DNA of 64,000 nt from Xestospongia bergquistia (lineage: Eukaryota; Porifera; Demospongiae; Haplosclerida; Petrosiidae): positions 3,701,821 to 3,765,820 of the forward strand of contig OZ014417.1 of assembly GCA_963965975.1 (NCBI GenBank), read 5' to 3'. Of the stretch, positions 1,816-64,000 are shown piece by piece. A program made the position numbers and the translations under genes. The stretch's first letter is position 1. Each line of letters starts with the position of its first letter. The notes under the pieces are model-generated. The model saw only the letters and a list, made by a program, of their open reading frames with translations, had not been told where the DNA came from and did not search any database.

Positions 1816-2199
1816 TAAACTATGTATAGGTAGTAACTTATACATAGTTTATTTTTAACAAATACTGTATACACAACCTTTTTAGATATAATAATAAGTT
1901 AAAACTGTAAACAATGAAATTAAAACTGTTGCATGTGTAATTATGCACAAAAATTTGAGGATAGCATTTGATGCTACTGTGGTGATATGAACAATGAATT
2001 TGTTACTACACTGTATATAATTCTTATGCTATTGAAATTTCATTAACAGACTATCTTACCTTGAATTTACTTCATTATTATAATATAAGGCAATACACGG
2101 TAGATGACGTTTACTATAGTGTTCACGTGATCGACCAAATAAATTATGAATATTAAGTAGTTTCATTCCTGTGACTAGCCGCTTTGGATCGTAGTTGAA

Positions 2200-6599: not shown

Positions 6600-7240
6600 A
6601 AATCCCACAGTACTGACATTGGTAAGGTTTATTACCAGTGTGTAATGCCAGTATGAAGATGATTCCTCAATGATAACTGATGCAAAAATTTCTTTCCACA
6701 ATAATGACAAATGTTATCTGAATTTCCAACTACCAGTTTATCATTAGAAATGAGTCCTTGTTTTTTGATTTTCTTCTTTTACATTAAATAGCTCATGTTT
6801 ACAAATGTGGTCTTGTAACTGATACAATTTACAAAAGATTTGACAATCATCTAAAAATAGATAGTAAAGTTATTTCTGCAAAAAGAATTATCTTACTTTA
6901 TTCAAAACTAGCTGTAATCCCAAGTTCTCTTACATATTGTTCACCATACCATACATAGAGTTCATTAGCAGGATAGATATGCTTGAATAAGAGTTGTCAC
7001 CGCTGTATTAATAAAACAATATTAACAATACTGATATAATCTAGCTTACACATCTTCAATTTTAAACCTTCAAAGTCTTCATATTATTGATTATTATCAT
7101 CTCCAAATAGCTGGAAAACTCGTTAGACAACTTGTAAATCAAGGCTCTCAAATGAAGGCTCCTCCCCTCTACAGGTTGGTAATATTTCTCCTGTTGTTTT
7201 ATGCTGCTTCAAGACACTCGTGACTTGATGATCCTAAGGC
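6600..7240 (-). pseudogene. PRDM9-like fragment P1
   Basis: On the minus strand this holds recognisable pieces of the PRDM9-like gene at 40-42.5 kb: a finger stretch (CxYCGKKF-like, about 6650-6720), linker-finger sequence (QLQDHI, about 6800-6840), the last part of the SET exon (NELYVWYGEQY-like, about 6905-6985), and the exon with LFGDDN and FEG.KIEDV (about 7050-7235). The array, the rest of SET and the 5' exons are missing. The upstream side is cut by LINE DNA at about 7240. It cannot encode a functional protein. Confidence 0.7.
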
Positions 7241-10640: not shown

Positions 10641-11570
10641 CTTAAATGGGACAAGACAACTTTGGATATTAGTAACATTGAAATATGAAGAGGGATTTCT
10701 ATACAAGAGATCATTTGATGCCATATTGCTGAGATATCTTTTACAAAAAAACACAAAATATTAACAAAAATTGGCATAAAATTATTAATAGTCAAGTCTA
10801 GTATAGGTATCAGACCAGTATTATTGAGATTTAGAGAGTGGGGTCAAATAATAACCATTGGTCTTAAAAGATGAACCATTGTTACTGTTTTGAACTACAG
10901 AGTTGAACACACCTCAATGTAAAAGTGAGGTTGAAAGGTCTGCTTGCTAGATTAATCCATGTGTTACCTCTGAATGTGAACCCTGAGGTAGTTGGAAATC
11001 ATTTGAGCCATACCAATAATTATCAACTGACGCCCTTAACATCTTGTGATAGAATACATGATATACCAGTAACTTAGTTGGTAAGTAATATAAAGTACAA
11101 GTTAATTAGATAAGTCGCATTTGTTATTAAATTTAACATATGACTGTGTGAGGAAAACCCTGCATATCCTCATACTTCTTTAATATTAATTACCTATTGT
11201 GTTTTCATGTCCTGTGTAATGATATATTGCATACAAATCTAAACTAAGAAGTTTATAGGAATTACATGACCATATTTCTATCTTATGAGTTATATTTTAA
11301 GAGACATTACATAATAATAAACAAACAAACCCTGTATATTGTGTAGTTAATAATGCAGGTAGCCATGATAAAAAAAATAAATTAATACTCATCTCTTTCA
11401 GACCAGATTACAATTGTTATACTAATTCTTGTATTAATATAATATTGCCAGTTATATCTTATCACTAAACTTTTATAAATTAGTAAATATATCTGTAGTA
11501 GTCGTAGTTACTTGTGTACTTTCTCTAGGGTCAGAAAACAGCTCTATATTTAGCATCAAAAGGGAGTACT

Positions 11571-13275
11571 GTGATATCATACAGCTACTGTTACACTCCA
11601 GTGTCGATTCTCTACGAGAGGGACATTCCAATTAAACGGGGTTATACGGATTTGAATGTCCGTCCATGGCTTCCGGAAATAATAGAATATGCTGCTGTGC
11701 GATTGCATGCTAAGGAGTGGCTCAATAGTTTGCACAGATATGACATTATGTCTCTTACTCTTCTCTTGCATAATTTTTTGGTAACCAGGATGCACCTTTC
11801 TCTAACAAACGCAGCAAAATTGATTGGAGAGACAGTCAAGAAAAGTGATCAAACTGTTAGAGAATGGAGAGTAGTGTTTTTAACTAACAGTAATAATTTC
11901 TCAGATTCGTTACAGGGAAGATATCAACGAAGAGGTGTTTTGTGGCACAATGAGCGATTAAATAAGTGTGTTAGACAGTTTGTGCGGGAAAATGCTTCAG
12001 TAAAAGGTCGACCAAACATGACAGCAAGATCGTTTTGCCACTGGGTCAATGAAGAGCTTCTGCCCAATGAACCTTTGGAACCATGTTTTCCTCGAAGAGT
12101 TAGTGTTGAAACCTCTAGAAAGTGACTGCATGAGCTTGGTTTTCATGTCTTGGACCAAAAGAAGGGTATATAAACTATATATATTGACAGACATGAAAGA
12201 GATGATGTGGTTGAGTATAGGTGGAAATTCATTCGTAAAATGGTTACCCTGGGATTTATTAACAAAGACAATGCTCCGACAATTGAAGCTGCTCAGTGTC
12301 TTCCAAGTGATTATGAATGTCCACCTACTGCTATTCTTAACAAGACTGTTGTCATTTTTCATAACGAATCAATATTCTCAGCTAATGAAGATCAAAGAAC
12401 ACAGTGGGGTAGTGTTGACATGTATTCGATAAAACCAAAGGGTAAAGGTGTTAGTATTATGGTTTCGGACTTTATAGATGAGCACAATGGATATTTGTGT
12501 CTTAATGATGAAGAGTTTGAACAAGCAAAGGTAATATATGGTCCAACAATGAAGAAAGAGGCAAGAGAGTTATTAGAATATGGTGACAATAAAGAAGAAT
12601 ATTGGACGTCTGAAAATTTTTTTGCACAAATTGACAAGGCTGTTAAAATTGCAAATATAAAATATCCTCCTGAAGATGGTTTCAAAGTTATTTGGATATT
12701 TGACAACAGCAGTTGCCACAATTCCTACTCTGATGATTCTCTAATAGCAGCTCACATGAATGCTAAGCCAGGGGGGAAACAAGCTGTTATGAGAGACACA
12801 ATCTGGGATGGGAAACCTCAAAGAATGGTGTTTAATATAGGTGTTCCTAAGGGACTGATACAGGTGTTAAAAGAAAGAAGTAGATATCACCCAAAAATGA
12901 AATTGGAAGATATGAGAAAAGAAATTTCATCACACCAAGACTTTCTTATTGAGAAAACAAAGTTGGAACACTTTTTACACAATCGTCAGCATTGCTATAA
13001 TGCTTCCCAAGTTCCACTGTGAATTAAACCCCATTGAACGTTGCTGGGGACAATCAAAGAGATACACCAGAGCATATACTAATTACATCTTTCCAAATCT
13101 ACGTAAAAACATTCCACTGGCTTTAGATATTGTTACACGAAACATCAAAAACTATTTTAGGAAGGCAAGGCAATACATGTTTGGTTATATAGAAGGTCTA
13201 GGTGCTGGCCCTGAGTTAGAAAAACAGATCAAAAAAATTTACAAGTGTCATCGAAAAATAAATGTAACTGAATAA
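11571..13275 (+). pseudogene. DDE transposase (Tc1/mariner/IS630-like), disrupted
   Basis: Plus-strand frames read a helix-turn-helix-like N-terminal half (11571-12122), then a DDE catalytic domain (12207-13275). Catalytic landmarks are FHNESIF near 12360, FDNSSCH near 12705 and NPIERCWGQ near 13030, the last supplying the C-terminal Glu. The first motif normally reads H-D-E in this superfamily and reads H-N-E here, so a catalytic Asp is lost. The frame is broken at least three times: an in-frame TGA at 12123-12125 where a Trp codon is expected, an insertion near 12165-12180 forcing a frame change, and a frameshift near 12985-13010 before NPIE. I found no convincing terminal inverted repeats. 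Inactive as it stands. Confidence 0.75.
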
Positions 13276-15427: not shown

Positions 15428-18150
15428 AAACACAAACTCAGGAGTCAGAGAAGAACATACATGTGCTTGATGTTATTGCCTCCATACAATAACGATCATT
15501 AATTACATGAATATAACATACTACATCAATATACCACATCTCTACTCCATTAAACAATACATAATAATTAAGAGAATAAAACAATTAGAAATATCAAAAG
15601 TACCTGTTGGAAGGCATCAAATTCGTTGTGAGTAATGACGACTGATAACAATTGGAGGTCTGACGACTTGCTCGGAATTATAAGGTGGTAAGAGATTATT
15701 AAAATAATAGTCAGTATCAACATTGAAGGCAAAACTTAATTAAGAAACCGAAAGTCTAATTTGATCAATGTGTCTTCTCCATAACTGTCTATTATCCATT
15801 TGAATGAGATATGATAGGAGACCAGATTTCTTTTGAACTACAAAGTCATATCCATATGGGTTCATCTTGCTAATTGCTGGTTAGCACTTAATTTCCGATA
15901 TCAATTTGCCTTTCTTAGATGAATCATGTTTCTTTTTGTGCTGTGTTGCTTAGCAAACACATGAGCTTCGTTGTTAGGTTTCAAAAGACTTATCCTATTT
16001 CACAAATCACATTTCAAAAACAGTTCACTAGCAGTTACACCAGTAGAAACCTGTGGTGTTGATTTATAACATAAGAGAAAATTGGATAAACTGTCTTCCA
16101 CAGATCTTCCTTCTCTGATGCTTTCATGGATCTCTTAAAGATTTGAACAAAACATTCAATAGCTCCATTAGAGGAATGGCATAACAAGGTACGAATATTA
16201 CAGATACCATTCTCTTGACAAAAATGAGCAAATTCTTGAGAAGTGAACTGAATACTATTGTCTGAAACTAGTTGATTAGGTAAATGATATGAAGAGAAAA
16301 CATGTTTAAGAATTTCAATAGTCTTAGTACATTAGGTGGATGACACACAAAATATTTTAGGCTGCTTAGAACGAGCATCGACAAGAAGAAAAAACATATG
16401 GCCTTGAAACAGTCCACCAAAATCTGCATGAACTCTTTGCCAAGGTCTGTCTGACTATATATAATCACGGATACATGGGAGCTGTAGGTGAAGAAGGCTT
16501 TACTTCTTGACATACTTGACAGGTCTTGCATACTTCTTCAATAGACTTATCTAAGGATGACCACCAAACATGACTTTTGGTAATAGTCTTTATTATAGAT
16601 ATACCAAGATGAGTTTTGTGTAGTTCAGTTAAGACACGTTCTTGCAACTTAGTAGGAATGACAACATGAATTCCCCATGAGAAACAATTATTCTCAATAG
16701 TAAATTCATCTTTACAATTATAAAATAGCTTATTATCAAAATTGGAAGGCCAACCTGATTTAGTATAATGGAAAACACGACCTAATAGACGGTCACAACA
16801 AGTAGCTTGTTGTAACTCTTTTGCTGTGACAGTCAATTTGCTTTATATTAAAAATGGTTGGTTCTAATGAAACAGCTATGTTAGAGGGTGTTGTTAGGGG
16901 TAAATGAGATAACATGTCAGCATAGCATTATTATGCTAGCTGATGGGAACATATTGTACATTGTAATAATATGCTGATAACAAAATGGCCAATCTCTGGA
17001 GCATAGCAGCTACTAAAGAGGGTATCCCCTTTTTGGGACTCAATATGGAGGTTATTAAATTGGAGATCTGAGGCTAAATTACAATTAAATTTATGTGGTA
17101 ATTAAGTAAAACAAAGATTGTAATTTACAAACATTCCCAGGAGAGGGAGCATTAACAATAGCATCCAACTTACTCTTTGATGTGCGGATTCCACAGAGTC
17201 TACACAATGTCTTAGGTATTCCAGAGTCTGAGAAATTCACATTTGCTGCTCTTCACATGAACTCCATACAATTGTAACTGACGTAACACTTCTTTAAGGT
17301 TCTTCAAATGGGTCTCTTAAGTTACTTTTGTGATTTTAAAAACATCAATGTAACATAAAACATTTATTATGCCCTCCAGAATAGAGTCCATAGTTCATTG
17401 AAACCGGGCAGGAGCAGATGACACTCCAAAAGGAACGCAATGTACCTGAATAGATCCCTATGAGTATTAAAATTGACATACTTGCGATAATCTTCATCTA
17501 ATAACATCTATTGATATACTCATGACAAATCCAATTTCGAAAATTGTTCACCACTAGTAAGAGTAACAAACAACTCCTCAGGAGTAGGGAGAGGGTGCTG
17601 GTCCTCAATTAGAGACTGATTAAATGTAATCTTATAGTCAATGCATATTTGGATTTTTTGCTCCCTTTCTTTGGGACTGGGACAATAGGAGCTACCTAAT
17701 CTCTACTTGTAACATTCTTGAGAATGCCAGCATTCTCAAGTTCTTCATCAATCACTGTCTTGTGTGCAAATGGTACAGGATGATGACAAAAGAAACGAGA
17801 TTTTGTGTCAGAACAAAGTTATAATCTAGCTTTAAATGTATTAATAGTTCTTAATTCATCTTTAAAAATATATAGACTAGAAAACACAACAACAAAACAC
17901 AGAACAGAACAACTAGGCGTGTCCTTATCGCCCCCATACAATAATGACAATAATATTAATGACATGATACATCAATATACTACACGTAATTACTAATTAA
18001 GTTGTGCAGTAATGTATAGAACATACGTGTCATGTTTATTTTATTAAAAGACACTACATGAATATAACATAATACATCAATATACCACGCGTAATTACTA
18101 ATTAAACTGTGCATAGAACATATGTGTCATGTTTATTTTTTAAAAGATAC
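15428..18150 (-). mobile_element. Ty3/gypsy retrotransposon, degraded, with LTR-like ends
   Basis: Minus-strand pol remnants occur in gypsy order. Reverse transcriptase lies at about 17800-17350 (APIVPVPKK, IDYKITFNQSL, FSKLDLS, LDEDYRKYVNFNTHR, PFGVSSAPARFQ). A decayed RNase H region follows (17340-16840). Next is an H2C2 integrase finger within 16836-16465 (HKTHLGI..CKTCQVCQEVKPS), then the integrase core at about 16480-15850 (VDARSKQPKIF, SDNSIQFTSQEF, SSNGAIECF). Stops and frameshifts break every part, and gag/protease are not visible. Flanking stretches 15428-15600 and 17873-18130 share 'catacaataa', 'atgaatataacat' and 'acatcaatata', and are probably diverged LTRs. The right one contains a 105-bp tandem repeat (from about 17967). 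A 3' piece also lies at 23816. Confidence 0.75.
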
Positions 18151-23910: not shown

Positions 23911-24110
23911 TTTTACGAGTTTTTATTTATCATGCAATAGTAATTTACCTAAACTTTTTGTGAATTTTTACGAGTTTTTATTTATCATGCAATAGTAATT
24001 TACCTAAACCTTTTGTGAGTTCTATATTCTTTTTAATATTCTCTAGTCTTCTCTTCTTATTATAGTCGCATAATTCTTCCATTACATCTGCCACTTCAGA
24101 CTAGCTGGTA
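23911..24110 (-). pseudogene. PRDM9-like 5' fragment (KRAB-like exon), orphan
   Basis: The minus strand carries the first exon of the PRDM9-like gene. The coding part, about 24110-24010, contains the conserved RRLENIKKN core and ends before a clear donor (ttag|gtaaat). The downstream exons are replaced by gypsy DNA. A 55-bp tandem repeat (23911-24016) duplicates the donor region. Confidence 0.65.
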
Positions 24111-28020: not shown

Positions 28021-28680
28021 TAATGAGTTCAATATTCTTTTTATTATTCTCAAGTCTTCGTTTCTCGTAGTCGCATAATTCTTGTATCATTTTGAACGTA
28101 AGTAAAGAAGTTAATAAATAGACCACTATTTCCGTTAAAAATATAAGTTCCTCCCCTAAATCTTAAATTGGTTTTAATTAAAAATTAGACTGTTTAATAA
28201 TTATTTGTTAAAATTGTAGGCTGTGATACTTTTGCTTTCTTACGAGGAATTTTTGTTACATCTACAACCTAACCTGATCCTTCTCCCTAAAATATACTCT
28301 CTGTCTTTCCCACAACAATTATATTAACTTCTTTATTTCAATCCATAATTATTAAGATTTTGAATTCTTTCCTAGATATCAACTTAGGCGAGTCCCTATG
28401 ACTGTTTAAAAGTTCTTTTTTATGGAACCATTTTATTTTAGCTTTTAATTTCTCAAATTCCTGCACATGATTCTTTGTTCATCCTGTTAGTCCTGACCTA
28501 CTCCACCGAACTTTGATTAATGTTAACAGATAACAGTCACTTGTATATATACTTTACGTGCACCTCCAGAGCTTGTGGGATAGTCTTTATTTTGAGTTCT
28601 TTTACTTTTGACATTTGTGACTTTTCCACTAAAGATGCATTTGGTTTGTGGCTCTTGCACTGTATCTGCTTGACATATTA
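28021..28680 (-). pseudogene. PRDM9-like KRAB exon plus gene 'Y' fragment 2
   Basis: The minus strand carries the KRAB-like exon (about 28110-28030, with the CDYEK-RRLE..IKKNIEL core and indels), then the R, Q and P-like exons of gene Y upstream (about 28240-28680, KIPRKKAKV and a decayed IDQPK exon). It is a duplicate of 36826-37475 apart from small indels. Confidence 0.55.
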
Positions 28681-29029: not shown

Positions 29030-29455
29030 GTAGGATTTATTACATGGACAGGAATAGTCAACTTCTTTTGAGTTCCCAGAAGTCTTCAAGTACCAGTTAC
29101 TAAAAGTCTTACTGGCACTTGGACTTTCTACTTCTATTGAATTCCAAGATTTGTCACTCAGAGATTGACAGTGAGTCAAACAAGAGTCTAAGAAAGCACA
29201 TTACTCTCAGATGTAATGATAGGATAAGTAGCTTCTTCAAACTCCTATATAATTTGTCAACACAAAGCATGATTATTTGTTATTAAGCTTAGATGAAAGA
29301 ATTGTTCAATTTTTCCATCTCCTCAGGAGTACAATAAGGTGGTGCGCATTTTAGTTGGAGAGTGTTATGAAGTTGCCATGTGTCATATTGAGAATTTAGT
29401 ACAAATATTGGACTATAGAGATATAATGATAAGTATACTAATAGAAGAAAGAAAA
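29030..29455 (-). pseudogene. Pectin acetylesterase exons 7-8 fragment
   Basis: Exon 7 (about 29440-29293) reads SPIFVLNSQYDTWQLHNTL and CTPEEMEK. Exon 8 (about 29247-29036) reads YPIITSESN, then shifts frame. Compared with the intact gene, exon 7 gains two bases before SPIF, loses one near its end, and its donor GT is CT. The upstream edge at about 29456 fuses directly to PRDM9-like exon T sequence, marking a rearrangement breakpoint. Confidence 0.8.
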
Positions 29456-30480
29456 TCTCCACTATCACTGCTACTATTATTTTAATTACTATATCGTCTC
29501 CTTTTTCTGACTGTAGTCTTGTTTTGGGACTTGTCATCTAAACCTACACACAATCTTTATGATTTACCATGTAATAGTATTTTACTTAAAGTTTTCGTGA
29601 GTTCTATATTCTTTTTAATATTCTCTAGTCTTCTCTTCTTATTATAGCCGCATAATTCTTGGGTTGTATCTGCCATTTTGAAAATCTATACATAATAGAC
29701 CACTATTTCCGTTAAAAATATTACTCCCTCCCCTAGAACTTAATTGTTTTTTATCAAAAATAAATTTATTAATAATAATTACTATTAGTTTAAATTCAAA
29801 ATTTAGAATGTTTAATAATCATTTGTTGAAATAGTAGGTTGTGATACTTTGCTCTCTTACAAGGAAATGTTCGTACAATGTTCGTTACAACTACAAGATC
29901 CTTCTCTCGAAAATACACTCTCTTTCTTTCCTACAACAATCACATATTAACTTCTTTATTTCAATCAACTTGTTATTAAGATTTGGAATTCTTTCCCAGA
30001 TGTCAACTTAGGCGAGTCCTTATGACTGTTTAAAAGGTTTTTTTATGGAACTATTTTTCTTAGCTTTTAACTTCTCAAATTCCTGCACATAATTCTTTGT
30101 CTGTCCATTTTCATCCTGTTGGTCCTGACCTACTCCACCAAACTTTGGCTGATCAATGTACAAAATTATGTTAACAGTCACTTGTATATATATGTTTTAT
30201 GTGGTCCTCCAGAGCTTGTACATGGGAAGGTCTTTAACTAGCTAAAACCTAGAAGGTATGATAGATTAATGATTTATGGAAAATAGACAAAAATACAACA
30301 TCCATAACATCATCAAATGAACTGGCAATATCAAGTTGAGGCATTAGCTGATGGAATCATCTTAGAAGACATATTTTGAATTCTTTTACTTTTGACATTT
30401 GTCTACTAAAGATGCACTTGGTTTGTAGCTTTTGCACTGTATATGCTTGACATACTTAAAAAATAAGGTAGTTTTAAACA
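29456..30480 (-). pseudogene. PRDM9-like exons T and S plus gene 'Y' fragment 3
   Basis: The minus strand carries a truncated exon T (about 29545-29456, RKRRR region), the KRAB-like exon (about 29690-29600, ELCGYNKKRRLENIKKN-like), then gene Y exons R (about 29920-29850), Q (about 30160-29990, KFGGVGQDQQDENGQ and YVQEFEKLKAK) and P (about 30480-30290). Close to 42290-43015. It ends against the 5' flank of receptor copy 2. Confidence 0.55.
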
Positions 30481-30638
30481 GTTTACTTCATTATTATAAT
30501 ATAAAGCAATGCACGGTAGATGATACTGAACGTTCATGTGATGATGATAACTGTAGTGTTCACATGATCGACCAAAATAATCAATGAATTATTAAGTAGC
30601 TTAATTCCTGTGACTAACCGCTTTGGATCGTTGCTGAA

Positions 30639-31694
30639 ATGGAGCTCTTACGTTCCAACTCATTTTCCAACCATTGCAATGGATCTTTTACAAAGAGTCA
30701 AATGAACCATTTGTTTATAGCGACAACAAGTACTAATGCTGTATCAACTCTGATGTGTATTGTGACAATAGTAATAGTTCTTTGTCTAAAGTTATACAAA
30801 TATTTTGTCTATCGATTGGCAATTTACCAAGTTGTCGCTGCGTTATTGTTTAGTTTGGCTGAATGTCTGGTTATATTAAATATAAACTATAGAAACAGTC
30901 TCTTTCATTCTATTGCCTGCAAGACAACAGCTTTTCTTATCCAATATACAACGTGGGTAAAACTTCTATTTACATTGTGTCTAGTCTTTCATTTGTTTTG
31001 TCTGGCTGTGTGTTTGAAAAACTTTCTGAAACTAGAAGTCATCTACATTTTACTATCTGTGCTGTTTCCTTTATTTCATGTCTGGATTCCATTTATTCAT
31101 AACTCATATGGCATAGAAAATGCATTGTGTTGGATAAGAAATTGGAATGACAACTGTCCCAATAGAAAGTATAAAGAAGGAATTATAGAACAATTTGTAT
31201 TGTGGTATGGACCTCTCTTTGTCTCTCTTACTGTCTGTTTCTTTATGGTCATTGGCATCCTTTTTGTTTTAACTTATAGAGCTTGTAGACACCATGAAGC
31301 AGAGGCTGAACCACTGATGATTAACCAAGAACAAAATCGTAATAAGACTGCTTTAAAACAACTCCTACCATTGCTAGCATATCCAATTGTGTTCTATATG
31401 CTAATTCTCTTTCCCATAGTTGATCAGATCTATGGAGCTATATCTTCACATGACAATTATAATTTAGTAATGGTCCATTCAGTGACAAATGGACTAGTGG
31501 GATTTTTCTCTGGACTAGCACTTCTAGTTCATGTCACATTTCTACAGAAGTCTTGTTACCGGAGGCGTCATCTACCTTTCTCTCTCAACAGAGTAGTAGC
31601 AGATACAGCAGTTTATTCAAGATACACTACTGCATCAACTAATGCCATAACACAATATATAATTGAAGGAGTAAATTCAGAAAATGATGAATGA
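30639..31694 (+). CDS. 7TM (GPCR-like) receptor, copy 2
   Basis: Intact single-exon gene, 351 residues, same layout as copy 1: N-glycosylation site near the N-terminus, seven hydrophobic segments, IACKTT before TM3, LCWIRNW in the second outer loop, SENDE tail. By eye it differs from copy 3 at about 20 of 351 positions and from copy 1 at more. Substitutions are mostly conservative and scattered through TM1, loops and tail. The ORF is fully open with no frameshift, so selection probably maintains it or the copy is recent. The start ATG sits in the same context as copy 3. AATAAA lies at 31796-31801. The 5' flank conserved with the other copies is about 150 bp. Confidence 0.87.
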   Translation: MELLRSNSFSNHCNGSFTKSQMNHLFIATTSTNAVSTLMCIVTIVIVLCLKLYKYFVYRLAIYQVVAALLFSLAECLVILNINYRNSLFHSIACKTTAFLIQYTTWVKLLFTLCLVFHLFCLAVCLKNFLKLEVIYILLSVLFPLFHVWIPFIHNSYGIENALCWIRNWNDNCPNRKYKEGIIEQFVLWYGPLFVSLTVCFFMVIGILFVLTYRACRHHEAEAEPLMINQEQNRNKTALKQLLPLLAYPIVFYMLILFPIVDQIYGAISSHDNYNLVMVHSVTNGLVGFFSGLALLVHVTFLQKSCYRRRHLPFSLNRVVADTAVYSRYTTASTNAITQYIIEGVNSENDE

Positions 31695-34575: not shown

Positions 34576-34710
34576 ATAAACACGATGATGACTTTGGAGA
34601 CTACTATTCTGACTTAATTCTTTTCCACAGTACTGACATTGGTAAGGTTTATCACCAGTGTGTATATGAAGATGATTTTTGAGATGAATGCTTTGATTAA
34701 ATCTTTTTCA

Positions 34711-34800
<90 letters not shown>

Positions 34801-34803
34801 CTA

Positions 34804-35093
<290 letters not shown>

Positions 35094-36414
35094 TCACAAT
35101 ACCTTTCTTGTCATTTTTGACAAGTAAAACATTGAGGATTAGCAGAAAGACAATTTGGATTATGTCGAAGATGCAAATCAAAATTAGATTTCAAAACAAA
35201 ACTACTTCCACAATTTTTGCAATTATAAAGTTGACAATCATCTAAAAATAAATAGTAAAGTTATTTCTGCAAATAGAATTACCTTACCTTCTTCAAAACT
35301 AGTTGTAATCCCAAGTTCTCTTGCATATTGTTCACCATACCATACATAGAGTTCAATTATATGACCCCTCTCTAAAACACTTTACATGAATAAATTAAAA
35401 TGATTAATACTTGTTAATTATTTACAATACCTCCCACATGCAGCTAGTATCTTCTCTTTCAGTTAGCTCTTCTTTTAACACTCTCCTTCCTTCATAAGGA
35501 CCAAATCTAACTCCACAAGGTATAAACTGTGTAGCAAAAACACCCAGACCAGCATTTGGTATCTTAGAAGGTTTAACAGTTAATTCAGATGGAACAAATA
35601 CACTAGTGTATTGTAGAGATGCTTCATCATGACCACTAGAAGGATCTAGAATCAGTAAGGGTCCATGACAGGATAATCATCATGATGAATTCGTTACAGT
35701 CATCACAAACTAGTAATAAAAGTTGTAGAAGTAACCATATTCATACTGAACTTACAGAGATATTCATCTTCTCTGTATTCTTTTTGGTGAGTTAATCTCT
35801 TAGGAAGTTAGGATATCTTTCATTAACTGGGCACTGAGGTATATCACCACTGTATTAAGAAAACAACATTAGCAATACTGATATAATCTAACTTGCATAT
35901 CTTCTATATCAAATCAAAGTCTTTATATTTTTCATTATTATCATCTCCAAATAACTTGAAAAACTCACTAGACAACTTGCTCTCAAATGAAGGCTCCTCC
36001 CCCTTTCAGGTTGGTAATATTTATTGTTGTTTTTTGCTGCTTCAAGACACTCATATGTTAATAATCCTAGAGGGATAGCCCAACATTACAGTTGTATCAA
36101 ACACTTACCACATGTTCTGCTATATCACACAGAGGATCTCTCACTGCAGTCTCAACTACTGGAACTAAACACAATAAAATGACATTCATATTTAATTTAC
36201 AAGTTTATTACCTCTTGTGATATTATTTGGTTTTTTCTTCATCACACAAGTCTCTAGACCAGGTACCCATTCATCTCCACTATCACTGCTACTATTACTA
36301 CAATTACTATATCGTCTCCTTTTTCTAATTCTACTCTTGTTTTGGGACTTAACATCTAAACCTACACACAATCTTTATGACTTTTTATTTACCATGCAAT
36401 TGCAATTAATTGGA

Positions 36415-36820
36415 TGTGATGGGCTCAAGTCTTCCCTCAGGATTAATAAATCTAGGAAACACTTGCTTTGCAAATACAACTTTTCAGACAATCCTTCATA
36501 TTCCTCTCTTATATACAAGAATATATAAATAAACATGAAGAATGCAGTAAAAATTGTTATTGTCAATATCATAATAACATAAATGTACTCTTAGCTAGAT
36601 AATGCTGTATATGTTTGATAAAATATCAAAGAATCTCTGTTTGTAGTAGGGGGATAAGGTGATACAGCCAAAAGATATCTACAATCACCTGAACAGTAAT
36701 TGACAAAACTAAGTGAAGAAAATTACTTATTTTATAGAATTCATTCCACATTGGTCTCCAGGTGATCGGGGAGATGCCCATGAGTTTTTCTTTAAATTAA
36801 AGAGAGGCATTTATAGTCAA
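36415..36820 (+). pseudogene. Ubiquitin-specific protease fragment, copy 2
   Basis: The plus strand reads SLPSGLINLGNTCFANTTFQ (about 36433-36492), a consensus USP Cys box with the GNTC core intact. HEECSKNCYCQYH follows one frameshift later. After a splice-like acceptor (about 36736), in another frame, comes IPHWSPGDRGDAHEFFFKLK with the D-A-H-E-F box intact. It lies inside PRDM9-like copy P2, between exons T and S, in antisense orientation. Frameshifts and the missing His box mean no active enzyme, but it is better kept than copy 1. Confidence 0.7.
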
Positions 36821-37044
36821 TAATGAGTTCAATATTCTTTTTAATATTCTGTAGCCTTCTTTTCTCGTAGTCGCATAATTCTTGGCATCACTTTGAACGT
36901 AAGTAAAGAAGTTAATAGACCACTATTTCCGTTAAAAATATAAGTCCCTCCCCTAAAACTTAAATTGGTTTTAATTAAAAATTAGACTGTTTAATAATTA
37001 TTTGTTGAAATTGTAGGCTGTGATACTTTTGCTTTCTTACGAGG

Positions 37045-39199: not shown

Positions 39200-39583
<384 letters not shown>

Positions 39584-40022: not shown

Positions 40023-40763
40023 TTAAAGATGAATACGAAGATGAGTTTGGTGATGAGCACTTTGGTTAAATCGTTTCCCACAGTACTGACATTGGTAAGG
40101 TTTATCACCAGTGTGTATACGAACATGAGTTTGAAGAATACCATTACGACTAAATCTTTTTCCACAGTACTGACATTGGTAAGGTTTATCACCAGTGTGT
40201 ATACGAACATGATTTCGGAGAGAACTGCTATTATTGAATCCTTTTCCACAGTACTGACATTGGTAAGGTTTATCACCAGTGTGTATACGAAGATGAGCTT
40301 GAAGATTACAATTATGACTAAATCTTTTTCCACAGTACTGACATTGGTAAGGTCTCTCGCCAGTGTGTATACGAAGATGACTTTGGAGAGAGCTGCTTTG
40401 ATTGAACCCTTTTCCACAGTACTGACATTGGTAAGGTTTATCACCAGTGTGTATACGAATATGAGTTTGGAGCTCACTACTCTGAGTAAATCTTTTTCCA
40501 CAGTATTGACATTGGTAAGGTTTATCACCAGTGTGTATACGAAGATGACCTCGAAGACTACCATTATGACTAAATCCTTTTCCACAGTACTGACATTGGT
40601 AAGGTTTATAACCAGTGTGAATACGAAGATGAGTTTGGAGAGAACTGCTTTGATTGAATCCTTTTCCACAGTACTAACATTGGTAAGGTTTATCACCAGT
40701 GTGTATACGAATATGATCCTTCAATGATGACCTATATGAAAATTTCTTTCCACAATAATCACA
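40023..40763 (-). repeat. Nine-unit 84-bp C2H2 zinc-finger minisatellite
   Basis: Exactly eight 84-bp units plus a 66-bp last unit and TAA (40025-40023). All keep CxYCGK(G/R/K)F...H(L/I/V)RIH, and all but the last continue TG(D/Y/E)(K/R)PYQ. Helix residues -1/2/3/6 per finger: YSSD, QSST, HGSG, QSET, QSSS, HCNA, NSSN, RGIT, QAHT. The backbones are almost identical while contact residues vary. Finger 2 starts with C-stop instead of C-Q. The last finger has His for the core Leu. Confidence 0.9.
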
Positions 40764-42451
40764 ATTGTTATCTAGATTTCCAACTACCAGTTTATCATTG
40801 GAAATAAGCCCCTTTTTTTGCTTTTCTTCTTTTACATTAAATAGCTCATGTTTACGAATGTGGTCTTGTAACTGATACAATTCACAAAAGCTTTCTTGAC
40901 ATTTTTGACAAGTAAAACATTGAGGATTAGCAGCAAAACAATTAGGATTATGTCGAAGATGCAAATCAAAATTAGATTTCAAAACAAAACTACTTCCACA
41001 ATTTTTACAATTATAAAGTTGACAATCATCTAAAAATAGATAGTAAAGTTATTTCTGTCAAAACAATTACTTTACCTTCTTCAAAATTAGTTGTAATTCC
41101 AAGTTCTCTTGCATATTGTTCACCATACCATACATAGAGTTCATTACCAGGATAGATATGCTTGAATGAGCGATAATAGATGTTACCATAATACTGAAAA
41201 GCTACTAAATTCTGTTCATCTTCATTGCGAGCACAGTTAATAAATCGTAACCAATTACTTTCCTTATCTGATTGACCATCAATATAATATGACTCCTCTC
41301 CAAAATGCTTTACCTAAATAAATTAAAATAATTAATAATTTTTATTATATTATTACACTACCTCCCACATGTAGCTAGTATCTTCTCCTTCAGTGAGCTC
41401 TTCTTTTAACACTCTCCTTCCTTCATAAGGACCAAATCTAACTCTACGAGGTATAAACTGTGTAGCAAAAACACCCAGACCAGCATTTGGAATCTTAGAA
41501 GGTTTAACAGTTAATTCAGTTGGAACAAATACAGTAGTGTATTGTAGAGATGCTTCATCATGACCACTAGAAGGATCTAGAGTCAGTAAGGGTCCATGAA
41601 CAGGACAATTACCATGATGAAATTTGTTACAGTCCTCACAAACTAGTAACAAATGTTATAAAAGTAACATTATTTATACAGAACTTACAGAGATATTCAT
41701 CTTCATCAGATAGTTCATCTCCTTCGTATTCTTTTTGTTGACTTAATTTCTTTGGATACATTTCACTAACTGGAAAATGTGGTATATCACCACTGTTTTA
41801 AGAAAACAACATTACCAATACTGATATAATTTAACTTACACATCTTCGATATCAAATCCTTCAAAGTCTTCAAATTCTTTAACATTATCATCTCCAAATA
41901 ACTCGAAAAACTGCGTATGCAGAAATGAAGGCTCCTCCCCCTTTACAGGTTGGTAATATTTCTTTTGTTGTGGTTTTTGTTGCTTCAAGACTCTTGTAAC
42001 TTGATCATCCTAACATTATTGGGAGGGATAGCCCAACATTACAGTTGTATCAAATACTTACCACATGTTCTGCTATATCACACAGAGGATCTCTCACTGC
42101 AGTCTCAACTACTGGAACTAAACACAATAAAATGACATTCATATTTAATTTACAAGTTTATTACCTCTTGTGATATCATTTGGTTTTTTCTTCATCACAC
42201 AATTCTCTAAAGCAGGTGTCCATTCATCTCCACTATCACTGCTACTATTACTACAATTACTATATCGTCTCCTTTTTCTGACTGTAGTCTTGTTTTGGGA
42301 CTTGTCATCTAAACCTACACGCAATCTTTACGAGTTATTATTTACCATGTAATAGTAATTTACTTAAAGTTTTCGTGAGTTCAATATTCTTTTTAATATT
42401 CCCTAGTCTTCTCTTATTATAGTGGCATAATTCTTGGGTTGCATCTCCCAT
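40674..42451 (-). CDS. PRDM9-like KRAB/SSXRD/PR-SET zinc-finger gene (P3)
   Basis: Eight minus-strand exons join with consistent phases: S 42451-42364, T 42308-42165, U 42117-42062, V 42009-41840, W 41792-41689, X 41642-41362, Y 41313-41076, Z 41029-40674. The product is 478 residues. In order: KRAB-like start (RRLGNIKKN, residues 15-23), SSXRD-like SDSGDEWTP (53-61), acidic stretch (DELSDEDEYL), zinc knuckle CEDCNKF..CPVHGP (189-206), PR/SET (about 215-350: IPNAGLGVFA, FGPYEGRR, NWLRFINCARNEDEQNLVAF, YPGNELYVWYGEQYARELGI), two linker fingers (CKNCGSSF, CQKCQESF), then one finger before TAG at 40674-40676. PRDM9 is a meiotic H3K4/K36 methyltransferase that places recombination hotspots through its fingers; every landmark but the long array is here. 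Eight more fingers follow the stop in frame. It may be an allele, an error or early decay. A role in meiosis is inference. Confidence 0.85.
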
Positions 42452-46330: not shown

Positions 46331-46749
46331 GCTAAAACAGTCACTTCTATTAGAACTCCAATCACTCAATTTTCCTAAGACAGCTATAAAGTAATACCTC
46401 ACATTGTTTATTTTCAACAAACACTGTATACACAATTTTTTAGATGTAATAATGAGATTAAAACTATAAACAATGAAGAACTGTTGCATTAGTAGTTATG
46501 CACAAAAATTTGAGGTTGACAGTTGATACTACGTACAGTTGTGATATGAACAATGAATTTGTTACCACACTACATATAGTTCTTGTGCCATTGACATTTC
46601 ATTAACAACCCAGAATTTACTTCATTATTATAATATAAAGCAATACACGGTAGAACGTTCATGTGATAACTATAGTGTTCACGTGATCGACCAAAATAAC
46701 AATGAATTAGCTTCATTCCTGTGACTAGCCGCTTTGGATCGTTACTGAA

Positions 46750-47805
46750 ATGGAGTTCTTACCTTCCAACTCGTTTTCCAATCATTGCAATGGATCTTTT
46801 ACAAAGAGTCAAATGAACCACTTGCTGATAGCAATGACAAGTACTAGTGCTGTATCAACTCTGATGTGTATTGTTACAATAGCAATAGTTCTTTGTCTAA
46901 AGTTATACAAATATTTTTTTTACCGACTGGCAATTTACCAAGTTGTCGCTGCGTTATTGTTTAGTATGGCTGAATGTCTGGTTGTATTAAATATGAACTA
47001 TAGAAACAGTCTATTTCATTCTATTGCCTGCAAGACAACAGCTTTTCTTATCCAATATACAACGTGGGTAAAACTTCTATTTACATTGTGTCTAGTCTTT
47101 CATTTGTTTTGTCTGGCTGTGTGTTTGAAAAACTTTGTGAAACTAGAAGTCATCTATATTTTGCTATCTGTGCTGTTTCCTTTACTTCATGTCTGGATTC
47201 CATTTATTCACAACTCATATGGCATAGAAAATGCATTGTGTTGGATAAGAAATTGGAATGACAACTGTCCCAATAGCAAGTATAAAGAAGGAATTGTAGA
47301 ACAATTTGTATTGTGGTATGGACCTGTCTTTGTTTCTCTTACTGTCTGCTTCTTTATGGTCATTGGCATCCTTTTTGTTTTAACTTATAGAGCTTGTAGA
47401 CACCAGGAAGCAGAGGCTGAACCAATGATGATTAACCAAGAACAAAATCGTAATAAGACTGCTTTAAAACAACTCCTACCATTGCTAGCATATCCAATTG
47501 TGTTCTATATGCTAATTCTCTTTCCCATAGTTGATCAGATCTATGGAGCTATATCTTCACATGACAATTATAATTTAGTAATGGTCCATTCAGTGACAAA
47601 TGGACTGGTGGGATTTTTCTCCGGACTAGCACTTCTAGTTCATGTCACATTTCTACAGAAGTCTTGTTACCGGAGGCGTCATCTACCTTTCTCTCTCAAC
47701 AGAGTACTAGCAGATACAGCAGTTTACTCAAGATACACTACTGCATCAACTAATGCCATAACCCAATATGTAATTGAAGGAACAAATTCAGAAAATGATG
47801 AATGA
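46750..47805 (+). CDS. 7TM (GPCR-like) receptor, copy 3
   Basis: Intact single-exon gene, 351 residues, closest to copy 2 (about 94% identical by eye). Same features: NHCNGSF glycosylation site, seven hydrophobic segments, IACKTT, CWIRNW, long third inner loop region RACRHQEAEAEP, tail SENDE. The 5' flank matches copy 1 back to about 46395 versus 1850, longer than the flank shared with copy 2, while the coding region is closer to copy 2. That mosaic suggests gene conversion or unequal exchange. The AATAAA present after copies 1 and 2 is altered here. Confidence 0.87.
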   Translation: MEFLPSNSFSNHCNGSFTKSQMNHLLIAMTSTSAVSTLMCIVTIAIVLCLKLYKYFFYRLAIYQVVAALLFSMAECLVVLNMNYRNSLFHSIACKTTAFLIQYTTWVKLLFTLCLVFHLFCLAVCLKNFVKLEVIYILLSVLFPLLHVWIPFIHNSYGIENALCWIRNWNDNCPNSKYKEGIVEQFVLWYGPVFVSLTVCFFMVIGILFVLTYRACRHQEAEAEPMMINQEQNRNKTALKQLLPLLAYPIVFYMLILFPIVDQIYGAISSHDNYNLVMVHSVTNGLVGFFSGLALLVHVTFLQKSCYRRRHLPFSLNRVLADTAVYSRYTTASTNAITQYVIEGTNSENDE

Positions 47806-56579: not shown

Positions 56580-58420
56580 AAAACAAGTTTTGCAGTATAT
56601 GTTTGACTAAATCCTTACAATACTGACATTGGTAAGGTTATCACAGGTGTTTTTATGAAGATGAATTTGGAGATTACTATAATTACTAAATTCTTTTCCA
56701 CAGTACTGACATTGTTAAGGTTTATTACCAGTGTGAATACAAAGATGAGTTTGGAGATGACTCCTTTGATTAAATCCTTTTCCACAGTGCTGACACTGAT
56801 AAGGTTTATCACCAGTGTGTATACAATGATGAGTTACGAGACTACCATGATTACTAAATCCTTTTCCACAGTACTGACATTGGTAAGGTTTATCACCAGT
56901 GTGTATATGACGAACATGAGTTTGAAGATCACCATTCTGACTAAATCCTTTTCCATAGTATTGGCATTTGTAAGGTTTATTACCAGTGTGTATACGAAGA
57001 TGAGTTTGGATTTTACTGCTTTGATTAAATTCTTTTCCACAGTACCGACATTGGTAAGGTTTATCACCAGTGTGTATACGAACATGAGTGCTCAACAATG
57101 ATTGATGCGAAAATTTCTTTCCACAATAATCACAAATGTTATCTAGATTTCCCACTACCAGTTATTATTATTGGAAATGAGCTTTTTTTGATCATCTTCT
57201 TTTACATTAAATACTTCATGTTTACGAATGTGGTCTTGTAACTGATACAATTCACAAAAGCTTTCTTGACATTTTTGACAAGTAAAACATTGAGGATTAG
57301 CAGAAAGACAGTTAGGATTACGTTGAAGATGTAAATCAAAATTAGATTTCAAAACAGAACTACTTCCACAGTTTTTGCAATTATAAAATTGACAATCATC
57401 TAAAAATAGACCAAATCTAACTCAACGAGTGTAGCAAAAACACGCAGACCAGCATTGGGTATCTTAGAAGGTTTAACAGTTAATTCAACTGGAACAAATA
57501 CAGTAGTATTGTAGAGATGCTTCATCATGACCACTAGAAGGATCTAGAGTCAGTAATGGTCCATGAGCAGGACAATCACCATGATGAAATTTGTTACAGT
57601 CCTCACAAACTAGTAACAAAAGTTGTAGAAGTAACCATATTCATACTGAACTTACGGAGATATTCATCTTCTCTGGATTCTTTTAGGTGACTTAATCTCT
57701 TAGGACATCTTCCACTAACTGGACACTGAGGTACATCACCACTGTATTAAGAAAACAACATCAGCAATACTGATATAATCTAACTTACACATCTTCAATA
57801 TCAAATCCTTCAATGTCTTCATATTCTTCAATCTTATCATCTCCAAATAACTCGAAAAACTCCTTCGACAACTTGCAATAACGGCTCTCAAATGAAGGCT
57901 CTTTCTCCTTTAGAGGTTGGTAATATTTATTTTGTTGTTTTTTTGCTGCTTCAAGACACTCATATGTTGATAATCCTAGAGGGATAGCCAAACATTACAG
58001 TTGTATCAAATACTTACCACATGTTCTGCTATATCACATAGAGGACCTCTCACTGCAGTCTCAACTACTGGAACTAAACACAATAAAATGACATTCATAT
58101 TTAATTTACAAGTTTATTACCTCTTGTGATATTATTTGGTTTTTTCTTCATCACACAAGTCTCTAGAGCAGGTACCCATTCATCTCCACTATCACTGCTA
58201 CTATTACTACAATTACTATATCGTCTCTTTCTCCTTTTCCTAATTCTACTCTTGTTTTGTGACTTGTCATCTAAACCTACACAATCTTATGACTTTTTAA
58301 CTAAAGTTTTCGTGAGGTCAATATTCTTTTTAATATTCTCTAGTCTTCTCTTCTCGTAGTCACACAATTCTTGCATTACATCTGCTATTTTGAACAAGCT
58401 GGTAAACAAGATAACAGACC
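56580..58420 (-). pseudogene. PRDM9-like pseudogene P4
   Basis: Minus strand. KRAB-like exon: about 58410-58318 (ELCDYEKRRLENIKKN). T: about 58275-58122. U: about 58075-58018. V: about 57985-57795 (FFELFGDDKIEEYEDIEGF). W: about 57755-57660. X is partly kept (about 57615-57412: CEDCNKFHHGDCPAHGPLLT to the TELTVKPSKIPNAGL region), then a deletion removes the rest of X and all of exon Y, fusing into the acceptor of exon Z (57399). The linker fingers are open to 57155, where a frameshift (ISNNNNW, stop) separates them from the array. The array keeps five fingers to a TAA at 56717-56715 and one more beyond. Contact residues (-1/2/3/6) are HSLT, QSKT, QGDT, NGST, QSHT, unlike P3. Finger 3 lost a Cys. 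Confidence 0.8.
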
Positions 58421-62962: not shown

Positions 62963-63317
62963 GTCTACTTAGATTTCGCGTAGTCAGCCCCGCCCCTTCG
63001 TAGATAAGGATGTGTCATTGAGAGGCGGTCCTAATTTACAGTCTCCACCTCTTTTTAAGTGCAAAAGTTAAAAGTGAACAGGAGTAATTCGAAGAGGTAA
63101 GTAACACGATTTGTTAGATTAAATTCTATCAATAGAATATGTTATACTTTTAAATACAATAGTGAAAACTCAACACATAATAGCTCGGTTTAGTACTGTT
63201 TCTTTCTGTAAAGTGTTTATTGTAGAAGCTAATAATCTATTATTATAACCCTTGTATTTTATTCACGCAAACAATATTGTTAAGTTGTTTTATGTTGTTG
63301 TTTTAGTGACCCAACTA
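62963..63317. promoter_or_regulatory. Divergent promoter with GC box; CLIP 5' UTR intron
   Basis: The esterase start (62962, minus) and the CLIP-like 5' UTR face apart. A GC box (gccccgcccc, 62987-62996) is part of a copy of the dispersed hairpin arm (cgtagtcagcccc). A donor at 63097 (gaag ag|gtaagt) and an acceptor at 63304-63306 define a 210-bp 5' UTR intron of the right-hand gene. Confidence 0.55.
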
Positions 63318-64000
63318 ATGAGTCGATTAAAGGCTCCTGGTAGTGCTGGCCGCTTAGTACGACCAGTTAGTGGGATAAAACCTCCTACTAGTGGCCTTGC
63401 TCCACCTTCCACAGCCAGTGTTGCTCGTAAAAGTTCTGCATCAAATGAGGCTGTTGATAGTAACATTGTTCAATCTCCTTTTGAAATAGGCGACCGTGTT
63501 ATGGTGGGTGGAGTTAAACCAGGAACAGTTTCCTTCATAGGACCCGCAAAATTTGCTCCAGGAATATGGGCTGGTATTGTCCTGGATACAGCTGAAGGCA
63601 AAAACAGTGGCTCAGTGAATGGTGTGAGTTATTTTCAGTGTGCTCCTAATCACGGGCTATTTGCCAAACCTGACAAACTAACTCTTGTACGAAAAGCAGG
63701 AACACAATCTATGGTACCAAAACAAGCCCCTCCTCCTCCTCCCTCTGAAATTGAATATGAAGTAGGAGATAAAGTAATTGTTGATGGATCGAAAACAGGT
63801 ACTGTTGCTTTTGTTGGACCAACTCAGTTTGCCAAAGGAATATGGATTGGTGTCACACTTGATACTCCCGAGGGAAAAAACAATGGGGCAGTTGCTGGAA
63901 TACAGTATTTTAATTGCTTACCAAATCATGGCCTATTTACTCGTCCAGCTAAGTTAGCTTTAGTACGTAGAAAAAGCAGTGAAGCATCATTACCACCACC
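63318..64000 (+). CDS. CLIP-170-like CAP-Gly protein, 5' part
   Basis: Open from ATG at 63318 to the window edge (227 codons, runs off). A Ser/Pro-rich start (MSRLKAPGSAGRLVRPVSG) precedes CAP-Gly 1 (residues about 58-122: GDRVMVGG, GIWAGIVLD, EGKNSGSVNG, YFQCAPNHGLF). A Pro linker follows, then CAP-Gly 2 (about 149-213: GDKVIVDG, GIWIGVTLDTPEGKNNGA, YFNCLPNHGLF). Two CAP-Gly domains near the N-terminus with Ser-rich linkers is the CLIP1/CLIP2 layout: microtubule plus-end tracking through binding of EEY/F tails. The coiled coil and zinc knuckles expected downstream lie outside the window. The GKN(S/N)G loops needed for tubulin/EB1 tails are intact. Probably an ordinary housekeeping gene; its GC content is higher than the surroundings. 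Confidence 0.93.
   Translation, partial: MSRLKAPGSAGRLVRPVSGIKPPTSGLAPPSTASVARKSSASNEAVDSNIVQSPFEIGDRVMVGGVKPGTVSFIGPAKFAPGIWAGIVLDTAEGKNSGSVNGVSYFQCAPNHGLFAKPDKLTLVRKAGTQSMVPKQAPPPPPSEIEYEVGDKVIVDGSKTGTVAFVGPTQFAKGIWIGVTLDTPEGKNNGAVAGIQYFNCLPNHGLFTRPAKLALVRRKSSEASLPP

What the first reader, a model, noticed from the sequence alone, without database searches (positions are those of the whole stretch)
40023..42451. PRDM9-type gene with full KRAB-SSXRD-SET-array layout in an apparent sponge
Seen: eight phase-consistent exons spelling a KRAB-like start, SDSGDEWTP, CEDC knuckle, a PR/SET domain with NCARNEDEQNLVAF and VWYGEQY, linker fingers and an 84-bp finger array. Known: this exact order is the PRDM9 (PRDM7/9) layout, and PRDM9 directs meiotic double-strand breaks. 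Inference: PRDM9-like hotspot control, or its direct precursor, existed at the base of animals. I cannot say whether this locus has been described.
Basis: partly seen in the sequence, partly recalled or inferred. Interest (0 to 1): 0.95.

Follow-up and report, generated by a model that had tools for sequence, protein, structure and literature searches.

The report
Large PRDM9-like gene family in sponge
The window holds one broken copy of a gene resembling PRDM9, the animal gene known for choosing where chromosomes recombine, and this sponge carries dozens of copies, many apparently intact and nearly all with a different DNA-reading part, which raises the question of why one animal would need so many.

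Summary
The eight exons are real: phases fit and introns are GT-AG. The SET domain is of PRDM9 type. Profiles from bilaterian PRDM9 hit, at E<=0.01, only family exon 1 (KRAB-related, 39 of 39) and exon 2 (SSXRD, 26 of 26) among 9,305 six-frame ORFs. Codon 481 is TAG: this copy ends inside the first array finger, the array staying open behind it. And it is one of at least 67 PRDM9-like loci in the genome. Of 46 such loci whose DNA I held, 25 have an open model from ATG through SET to the fingers, with 24 different arrays; DNA-contact positions -1, 2, 3, 6 are the four most variable of 28. 20 of these 25 keep all three catalytic tyrosines. A gene with the ZCWPW domain order is present. PRDM9 homologues in sponges are already in print, so 'PRDM9 at the base of animals' is not new; I found no report of an expansion on this scale (largest seen: 14, lake whitefish). 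Use in meiosis is inferred, not shown.

The parts
42364..42451 (-). exon 1, start codon and KRAB-related (aKRAB) C-terminal part
   Evidence: model; aKRAB profile E=0.0033 for this copy, best copy 9.9e-10
42165..42314 (-). exon 2, SSXRD core SDSGDEWTP
   Evidence: SSXRD profile E=0.00037 for this copy
42062..42117 (-). exon 3, linker (not found by tblastn in a subgroup of paralogues)
41840..42009 (-). exon 4, acidic linker
41689..41792 (-). exon 5, pre-SET linker ending DEDEYL
41362..41642 (-). exon 6, CEDC zinc knuckle and first half of PR/SET
41076..41313 (-). exon 7, second half of PR/SET with NCARNEDEQNLVAF and VWYGEQY
40677..41029 (-). exon 8, readable part: linker fingers up to the stop
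40674..40676 (-). in-frame TAG stop in the first array finger (codon 481)
40023..40673 (-). 84-bp C2H2 finger array behind the stop, open for 216 aa, eight C2H2 matches
39222..39556 (-). degenerate finger remains downstream, with stops
34576..36884 (-). second family copy, broken (exon 6 partial, exon 7 mostly missing, stop in exon 8)
56634..58388 (-). third family copy, broken (exon 7 missing, exon 6 split); too little SET to be among the 67 loci
29455..29676 (-). exon 1 and exon 2 fragment of the family
24005..24094 (-). exon 1 fragment
28025..28084 (-). exon 1 fragment
6616..7233 (-). fragment with exon 4, 7 and 8 pieces

Best explanation
The window gene is a broken member of a lineage-specific family of PRDM9-type genes in a sponge. 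Shown from sequence: intact members encode a KRAB-related part, SSXRD, PR/SET and a C-terminal C2H2 array whose DNA contacts differ in nearly every copy. Inferred from homology: each intact protein binds its own DNA sites through its fingers and methylates histone H3 there (H3K4me3, H3K36me3). Most likely, but not shown, this happens in germ cells, where the marks steer meiotic double-strand breaks and are read by the ZCWPW-type protein, so that hotspot addresses come from a repertoire of genes rather than from one. The window copy itself should be silent or make an array-less protein; its short SET branch and open array suggest that it broke recently (inference).
For: SET best match PRDM9; in the SET tree the family is one clade (100/96), sister to Amphimedon (98/87), among sponge PRDM9-like proteins (94/99). 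aKRAB profile: 39 of 39 hits at E<=0.01 overlap family exon 1; SSXRD: 26 of 26 overlap exon 2. 25 open full-length models in the 46 family loci held. Contact positions -1, 2, 3, 6 differ in 63-73% of finger pairs, the four highest of 28; pooled pN/pS 1.35 at contacts against 0.67 at 21 other positions; SET median dN/dS 0.45. 24 different arrays in 25 genes. All three catalytic tyrosines in 20 of 25. A gene with zf-CW then PWWP, the ZCWPW1/2 order; in vertebrates presence of ZCWPW1/2 is coupled to that of PRDM9 (PMC8892340, passages).
Against: No transcript, protein or chromatin data. Within-array homogenisation, a hallmark of PRDM9 (passages of PMC2779102), is barely visible (0.211 within against 0.221 between genes). 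Dozens of addresses are not what single-gene hotspot models expect (inference). The first half of the KRAB-A box is not seen, and Pfam's KRAB and SSXRD models fail. Five of 25 intact copies carry F for a catalytic Y. Many copies are broken, which fits plain birth-and-death. The closest solved matches of the ZCWPW-like gene are MORC3 (CW) and MSH6/NSD2 (PWWP), ranked above ZCWPW1/2, and such a gene could read H3K4me3/K36me3 outside meiosis.
Confidence: 0.5

Rival explanations
1. The family is a SET-retaining counterpart of tetrapod KRAB zinc-finger proteins: a growing set of DNA-addressed chromatin regulators that track transposable elements or regulate genes, with no role in choosing recombination sites.
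For: Clustered loci, many copies, one array per gene and diversified contacts look like KRAB-ZNF clusters (comparison recalled). Little homogenisation within arrays. One copy (C7:3551751-3550196) has lost both SET exons, joining exon 5 to exon 8, though with a broken frame.
Against: SET with its tyrosines is kept and constrained in the intact copies. The KRAB-A part of human PRDM9 is called inactive for silencing and TRIM28 binding (PMC8835667, abstract passage). I saw no intact SET-less member: exon 1-2 peptides matched 138 times, all on the four family contigs, and chains without SET in the DNA held are fragments or broken. The one Pfam KRAB match in the genome lies elsewhere (C12, 21 bits, E=0.047, two stops inside) and was not followed up.
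Confidence: 0.3
2. Only one or a few copies work, as an ordinary PRDM9; the rest are birth-and-death debris and unexpressed spares that may donate fingers by gene conversion.
For: 21 of the 46 loci held were not counted intact, among them the window gene and the copy at 34576-36884; two of the 21 may be intact but lack a 5' part (C7_3916121, not fetched; C14, no exon 1 recognised). In salmonids many extra copies are truncated or broken and one or two per species are full-length (PMC11703093, passages).
Against: 25 copies have open models of 625-825 aa, and SET dN/dS exceeds 1 in only 4 of 493 pairs.
Confidence: 0.3
3. The loci are an assembly artefact (uncollapsed haplotypes or chimeric joins).
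For: Two copies share the same ordered contacts, so some very recent or artefactual duplicates may exist.
Against: Copies lie at distinct places on four contigs; SET median dS among copies is 0.12; 24 different arrays in 25 intact genes.
Confidence: 0.04

Closest known systems
Vertebrate PRDM9 (PRDM7/9)
   Same: KRAB-related part, SSXRD, zinc knuckle plus PR/SET with the three tyrosines, C-terminal finger array in the last exon with variable contact positions
   Different: At least 67 loci; short N-terminus without the first half of KRAB-A; weak within-array homogenisation; function untested; window copy truncated by TAG
PRDM9-like proteins of other sponges: P0001 (Em0017g774a, Ephydatia by recall of the identifier), P0058 (Dysidea avara), P0002 (Amphimedon A0A1X7ULJ8, named uncharacterized), P0069 (scpid67802, Sycon by recall)
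   Same: Same SET clade; P0001 and P0058 share the short KRAB-related start and an SSXRD-like core
   Different: One cluster for P0001's species, one for Amphimedon and five for Dysidea in my two listings, which are limited by shared words, protein length and, to 120 of 516 rows
Salmonid PRDM9 paralogues
   Same: Multi-copy PRDM9 with full-length, truncated and broken copies
   Different: 6 to 14 copies per genome, one or two full-length (PMC11703093, passages)
Tetrapod KRAB zinc-finger protein clusters
   Same: Clusters with one diversified array per gene (recalled)
   Different: Those lack SET and carry a modern KRAB; here SET is kept and Pfam KRAB does not match at the loci

Membership tests
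PRDM9 (PRDM7/9) | KRAB-related (aKRAB) domain at the N-terminus | tested here: met
   Profile from bilaterian PRDM9: 39 of 39 hits at E<=0.01 on family exon 1. Only the C-terminal part is present; Pfam KRAB does not match.
PRDM9 (PRDM7/9) | SSXRD motif | tested here: met
   26 of 26 hits at E<=0.01 on exon 2; core motif only, Pfam SSXRD does not match.
PRDM9 (PRDM7/9) | PR/SET of the PRDM9 clade | tested here: met
   Short PRDM1 and PRDM4 pieces fell among bilaterian PRDM9 and were flagged as long branches, so the outgroup is imperfect.
PRDM9 (PRDM7/9) | Catalytic tyrosines (276, 341, 357 of human PRDM9, numbering recalled) | tested here: met
   Window gene has all three; in 32 near-complete open SETs 27, 32 and 31 have Y.
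PRDM9 (PRDM7/9) | Long C-terminal C2H2 array in frame with SET, window copy | tested here: not met
   TAG at codon 481.
PRDM9 (PRDM7/9) | Long C-terminal C2H2 array in frame with SET, family | tested here: met
   25 of 46 loci held, 5-14 C2H2 units, linker fingers included.
PRDM9 (PRDM7/9) | Excess change at finger contacts -1, 3, 6 | tested here: met
   (among paralogues, not between species).
PRDM9 (PRDM7/9) | Concerted evolution within the array | tested here: inconclusive
   0.211 within against 0.221 between genes; 0 of 500 shuffles as low, but the effect is tiny.
PRDM9 (PRDM7/9) | H3K4/K36 methylation and direction of meiotic breaks | not testable with these tools
   Needs protein, chromatin and germ-line data.
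Tetrapod KRAB zinc-finger proteins | Modern KRAB domain, no SET | tested here: not met
   SET present, Pfam KRAB absent at the loci.
ZCWPW1/2 (gene on contig C9) | zf-CW followed by PWWP | tested here: met
   PF07496 43 bits and PF00855 52 bits in consecutive exon pieces joined by hand. Orthology was not tested by a tree.

The most novel reading that the evidence does not exclude
A sponge has turned PRDM9 into a large working repertoire: at least 25 intact, differently addressed PRDM9-type methyltransferases act together in one genome, either as a many-gene system for choosing recombination sites or as an independent, SET-keeping counterpart of the tetrapod KRAB zinc-finger expansion.
Probability: 0.5. 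Interest if true: 0.9.

Novelty: new variant of a known kind. Interest (0 to 1): 0.75.

Why it matters
In the papers I saw, PRDM9's role in recombination is traced back to the ancestor of bony vertebrates (about 420 million years) and genomes carry at most 14 copies, one or two of them full-length. A sponge with 25 apparently intact copies whose DNA contacts have diverged while SET is kept makes two open questions testable in one animal: whether PRDM9-type hotspot choice is as old as animals, and whether PRDM9-like genes can by themselves become a large family as KRAB zinc-finger genes did in tetrapods.

Tried and rejected
Pfam KRAB and SSXRD searches gave nothing at the loci (the only KRAB match in the genome, on C12, is weak and was not followed up). 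I did not take this as absence: I see PF01352 in none of the 56 rows either, though one search lists it for some sharks, a coelacanth and mammals; PRDM9-derived profiles were used instead. A first finger pattern was wrong and was mended. A regular expression found no aKRAB in any protein; replaced. The SET check missed two copies (C7_843688, C7_873366) whose motif deviates; I read their peptides and counted them in. Locus names carry wrong coordinates (script slip) and are not used. The species was not identified: no paper with the assembly size turned up. I considered predicting target motifs from the fingers and left it out, as recognition codes are too loose to decide between recombination and transposon targets. 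Structure prediction was not run. Ponting 2011 and a 2016 survey of Prdm genes are not held.

Searches behind 'no report found': in the held open-access library only, and I saw the listed rows, not every paper counted.

Rows dropped and limits: the splice search takes GT-AG pairs within 45 bases of the expected ends and passes over pairs that would bring in a stop, so 'intact' means that an open model exists. Models were built only where exon 7 is nearly complete (41, one of them the unrelated C11 gene, so 40 in the family); loci with a split or missing exon 7 count as not intact in '25 of 46'. C7_3916121 lacks its 5' part because I did not fetch it; C14 lacks a recognisable exon 1; neither is in the 25. 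21 further family loci were not read. 67 is a lower bound: copies with little SET (window 56634-58388; C7:3551751-3550196) are not in it. Fingers: 187 canonical units in open frame of 207 found; units off the 28-residue pattern were dropped, and the pattern itself fixes the Zn ligands and the last P, so their constancy is no result. pN/pS leaves out positions -2, 1 and 5. dN/dS: 493 of 496 pairs (dS 0.02-1.0). The two closest array pairs differ too little to inform. Tree: 27 of the 147 database proteins held, 32 family SETs, 7 others. One search scored 150 of 686 candidates.

Full report
Check of the observation. On the minus strand, exons at 42451-42364, 42314-42165, 42117-42062, 42009-41840, 41792-41689, 41642-41362, 41313-41076 and 41029-40023 join with fitting phases and GT-AG introns. 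The protein starts MGDATQELCHYNKRRLGNIKKNIELTKTL, carries SSDSGDEWTPALE, the knuckle CEDC and a PR/SET domain; Pfam gives PRDM2_PR 149 bits, SET 50 bits and C2H2 fingers. The 84-bp array has 8.1 copies at 40033-40716. The product is 480 aa with the linker fingers but without the array; the array remains open behind the stop. I cannot tell whether the TAG is fixed, polymorphic or a sequencing error.

Identity. Against solved structures the SET region scores 156 bits with PRDM9 chain 4c1q, 100 with PRDM14, 93 with PRDM12, 84 with PRDM11. In a 66-row SET tree the family is one clade (100/96), sister to an Amphimedon queenslandica protein (98/87), inside a clade of sponge PRDM9-like proteins (94/99), with cnidarian and bilaterian PRDM9, and apart from PRDM12, PRDM14 and the genome's C11 gene (89/95). 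Short PRDM1 and PRDM4 pieces fell among bilaterian PRDM9; the tool flagged them as long branches, so the outgroup is imperfect. PRDM11 fell inside vertebrate PRDM9. The species is a sponge by this tree; it is not named, and the best-matching pieces are only up to 77% identical to the Amphimedon protein.

KRAB and SSXRD. Pfam's models do not match. I therefore built profiles from the N-termini of bilaterian PRDM9 proteins found and searched the 9,305 six-frame ORFs of 20 aa or more in the window and the genome DNA in my set. At E<=0.01, 39 of 39 aKRAB hits overlap family exon 1 and 26 of 26 SSXRD hits overlap family exon 2; at E<=0.1 one of 47 aKRAB hits lies elsewhere and 32 of 32 SSXRD hits fit. 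The window copy scores 0.0033 and 0.00037. Only the C-terminal part of KRAB-A is present. P0001 and P0058 of other sponges start the same way, so the short start is probably real.

A family, not a gene. A search of the window's own genome (146.46 Mb, 21 contigs) with the PR-domain model gave 96 matches, which group into 69 loci. One is, by eye, a SUV39-like SET (C4:9796978) and one a PRDM14/12-like gene (C11). This leaves 67 PRDM9-like loci: 57 on C7, 8 on C1, one each on C4 and C14. It is a lower bound, since copies with little SET are missed. Peptides of exons 1-2 matched 138 times, all on these four contigs; the finger-array matches that were listed also lie only there (196 matches, not all listed, 150 of 686 candidates scored). 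I held the DNA of 48 of the 69 loci, 46 of the family.

Intact copies. Of 41 gene models with a near-complete exon 7 (40 in the family), 23 were flagged full-length by script and two more by reading: 25 of the 46 family loci held. The models allow some freedom at splice sites and avoid stops there, so intact means that an open model exists. They are 625-825 aa with 5-14 C2H2 units, linker fingers included, median 11. In a subgroup no exon 3 is recognised and exon 2 joins exon 4 in frame. The window's three copies are broken. The copy on C4 branches first in the SET tree (99/72) and has no proper array. One copy (C7:3551751-3550196) has lost both SET exons, joining exon 5 to exon 8, with a broken frame.

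How the parts evolve. Among 187 canonical fingers, positions -1, 2, 3 and 6 differ in amino acid in 72, 73, 70 and 63% of pairs; the next highest positions are at 58 and 54%. The Zn ligands are fixed by my pattern and say nothing. Pooled pN/pS is 1.35 at contacts and 0.67 at 21 other positions, uncorrected and with non-independent pairs. In array pairs of 0.17-0.22 codon difference, non-synonymous change is denser at contacts, for instance 10 of 24 contact codons against 9 of 126 others in C7_857927 and C7_879013 (the former has a stop in SET); the two closest pairs differ too little to inform. The SET exons show median dN/dS 0.45 at median dS 0.12 (493 pairs). Y276 is Y in 27 of 32 and F in 5; Y341 is Y in 32 of 32; Y357 is Y in 31 of 32 (numbering recalled). 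All three are kept in 20 of the 25 intact copies (19 by motif; C7_879013 from the alignment). 25 genes carry 24 different arrays, judged on canonical fingers. Against a plain PRDM9 picture: fingers within a gene are hardly more alike than between genes (0.211 against 0.221).

Partner. Two zf-CW matches were found in the genome. The one on C9 is followed by a PWWP exon, the order of ZCWPW1 and ZCWPW2. These are known or expected readers of PRDM9's marks, and their presence is coupled to that of PRDM9 in vertebrates (PMC7494361 and PMC8892340, passages). Solved-structure matches rank MORC3 CW and MSH6 or NSD2 PWWP above the ZCWPW1/2 single domains, so the assignment rests on the domain order.

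Mechanism. Shown: architecture, family size, open frames, constraint on SET, diversification of contacts. Inferred: DNA-addressed methylation of H3K4 and H3K36. Held at about one in two: use in meiosis to place breaks. The rivals, a KRAB-ZNF-like set of chromatin regulators, or a few working genes amid debris, stay open.

What is known. A 2026 review states that full-length PRDM9 homologues occur in Cnidaria and sponges, citing Oliver 2009 and Ponting 2011 (PMC13186367, passages); 'sponge' does not occur in the main text of Oliver 2009 (PMC2779102, term search), and Ponting 2011 was not held. Oliver 2009 reports positive selection at -1, 3 and 6 in Nematostella (passage). The largest copy number I met is 14 in lake whitefish (PMC11703093, passage). 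Several species in my listings have more than one PRDM9-like cluster (for instance Rhinoraja, Amphibalanus, Dysidea), so multi-copy as such is not unique; the scale and the number of intact copies are what I did not find in print.

Noticed in passing
window 2179-3246, 30618-31691, 46729-47802 (+): Three near-copies of a single-exon ORF that looks like a seven-helix receptor; Pfam gives only a weak sub-threshold GPCR match for the third, the only one scanned. They may have been duplicated together with the PRDM9-like copies.
   Followed up: partly
window 16468-16842 (-): Integrase zinc-binding ORF (PF17921, 53 bits), probably a retrotransposon remnant.
   Followed up: partly
window 11529-13019 (+): Two overlapping ORFs that look like a transposase by eye; no Pfam match.
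   Followed up: partly
window 63249-63998 (+): CAP-Gly protein ORF (PF01302, 175 bits).
   Followed up: no
G000:C1 1667200-1753800: Family copies lie in two opposite-facing groups (minus at 1.668-1.700 Mb, plus at 1.738-1.754 Mb), suggesting an inverted duplication.
   Followed up: no
G000:C7 4323015-4324544: Longest stop-free finger frame in the listing, 593 aa, at a locus not fetched.
   Followed up: no
L030 (G000:C4 5614800-5618500): Family copy that branches first in the SET tree, with an extra acidic segment also seen in C7_899429 and no proper array; another finger array lies about 1 kb upstream.
   Followed up: partly
G000:C7 3519843 and 3944487: Two loci 0.42 Mb apart on opposite strands with identical ordered finger contacts, the closest array pair.
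   Followed up: partly
G000:C7 3551751-3550196 (L028): Family copy that lost both SET exons, so that exon 5 runs into exon 8; frame broken by a shift and a stop.
   Followed up: partly
G000:C12 2747302-2747367 (-): Only Pfam KRAB match in the genome (21 bits, E=0.047, two stops inside), away from the family.
   Followed up: no
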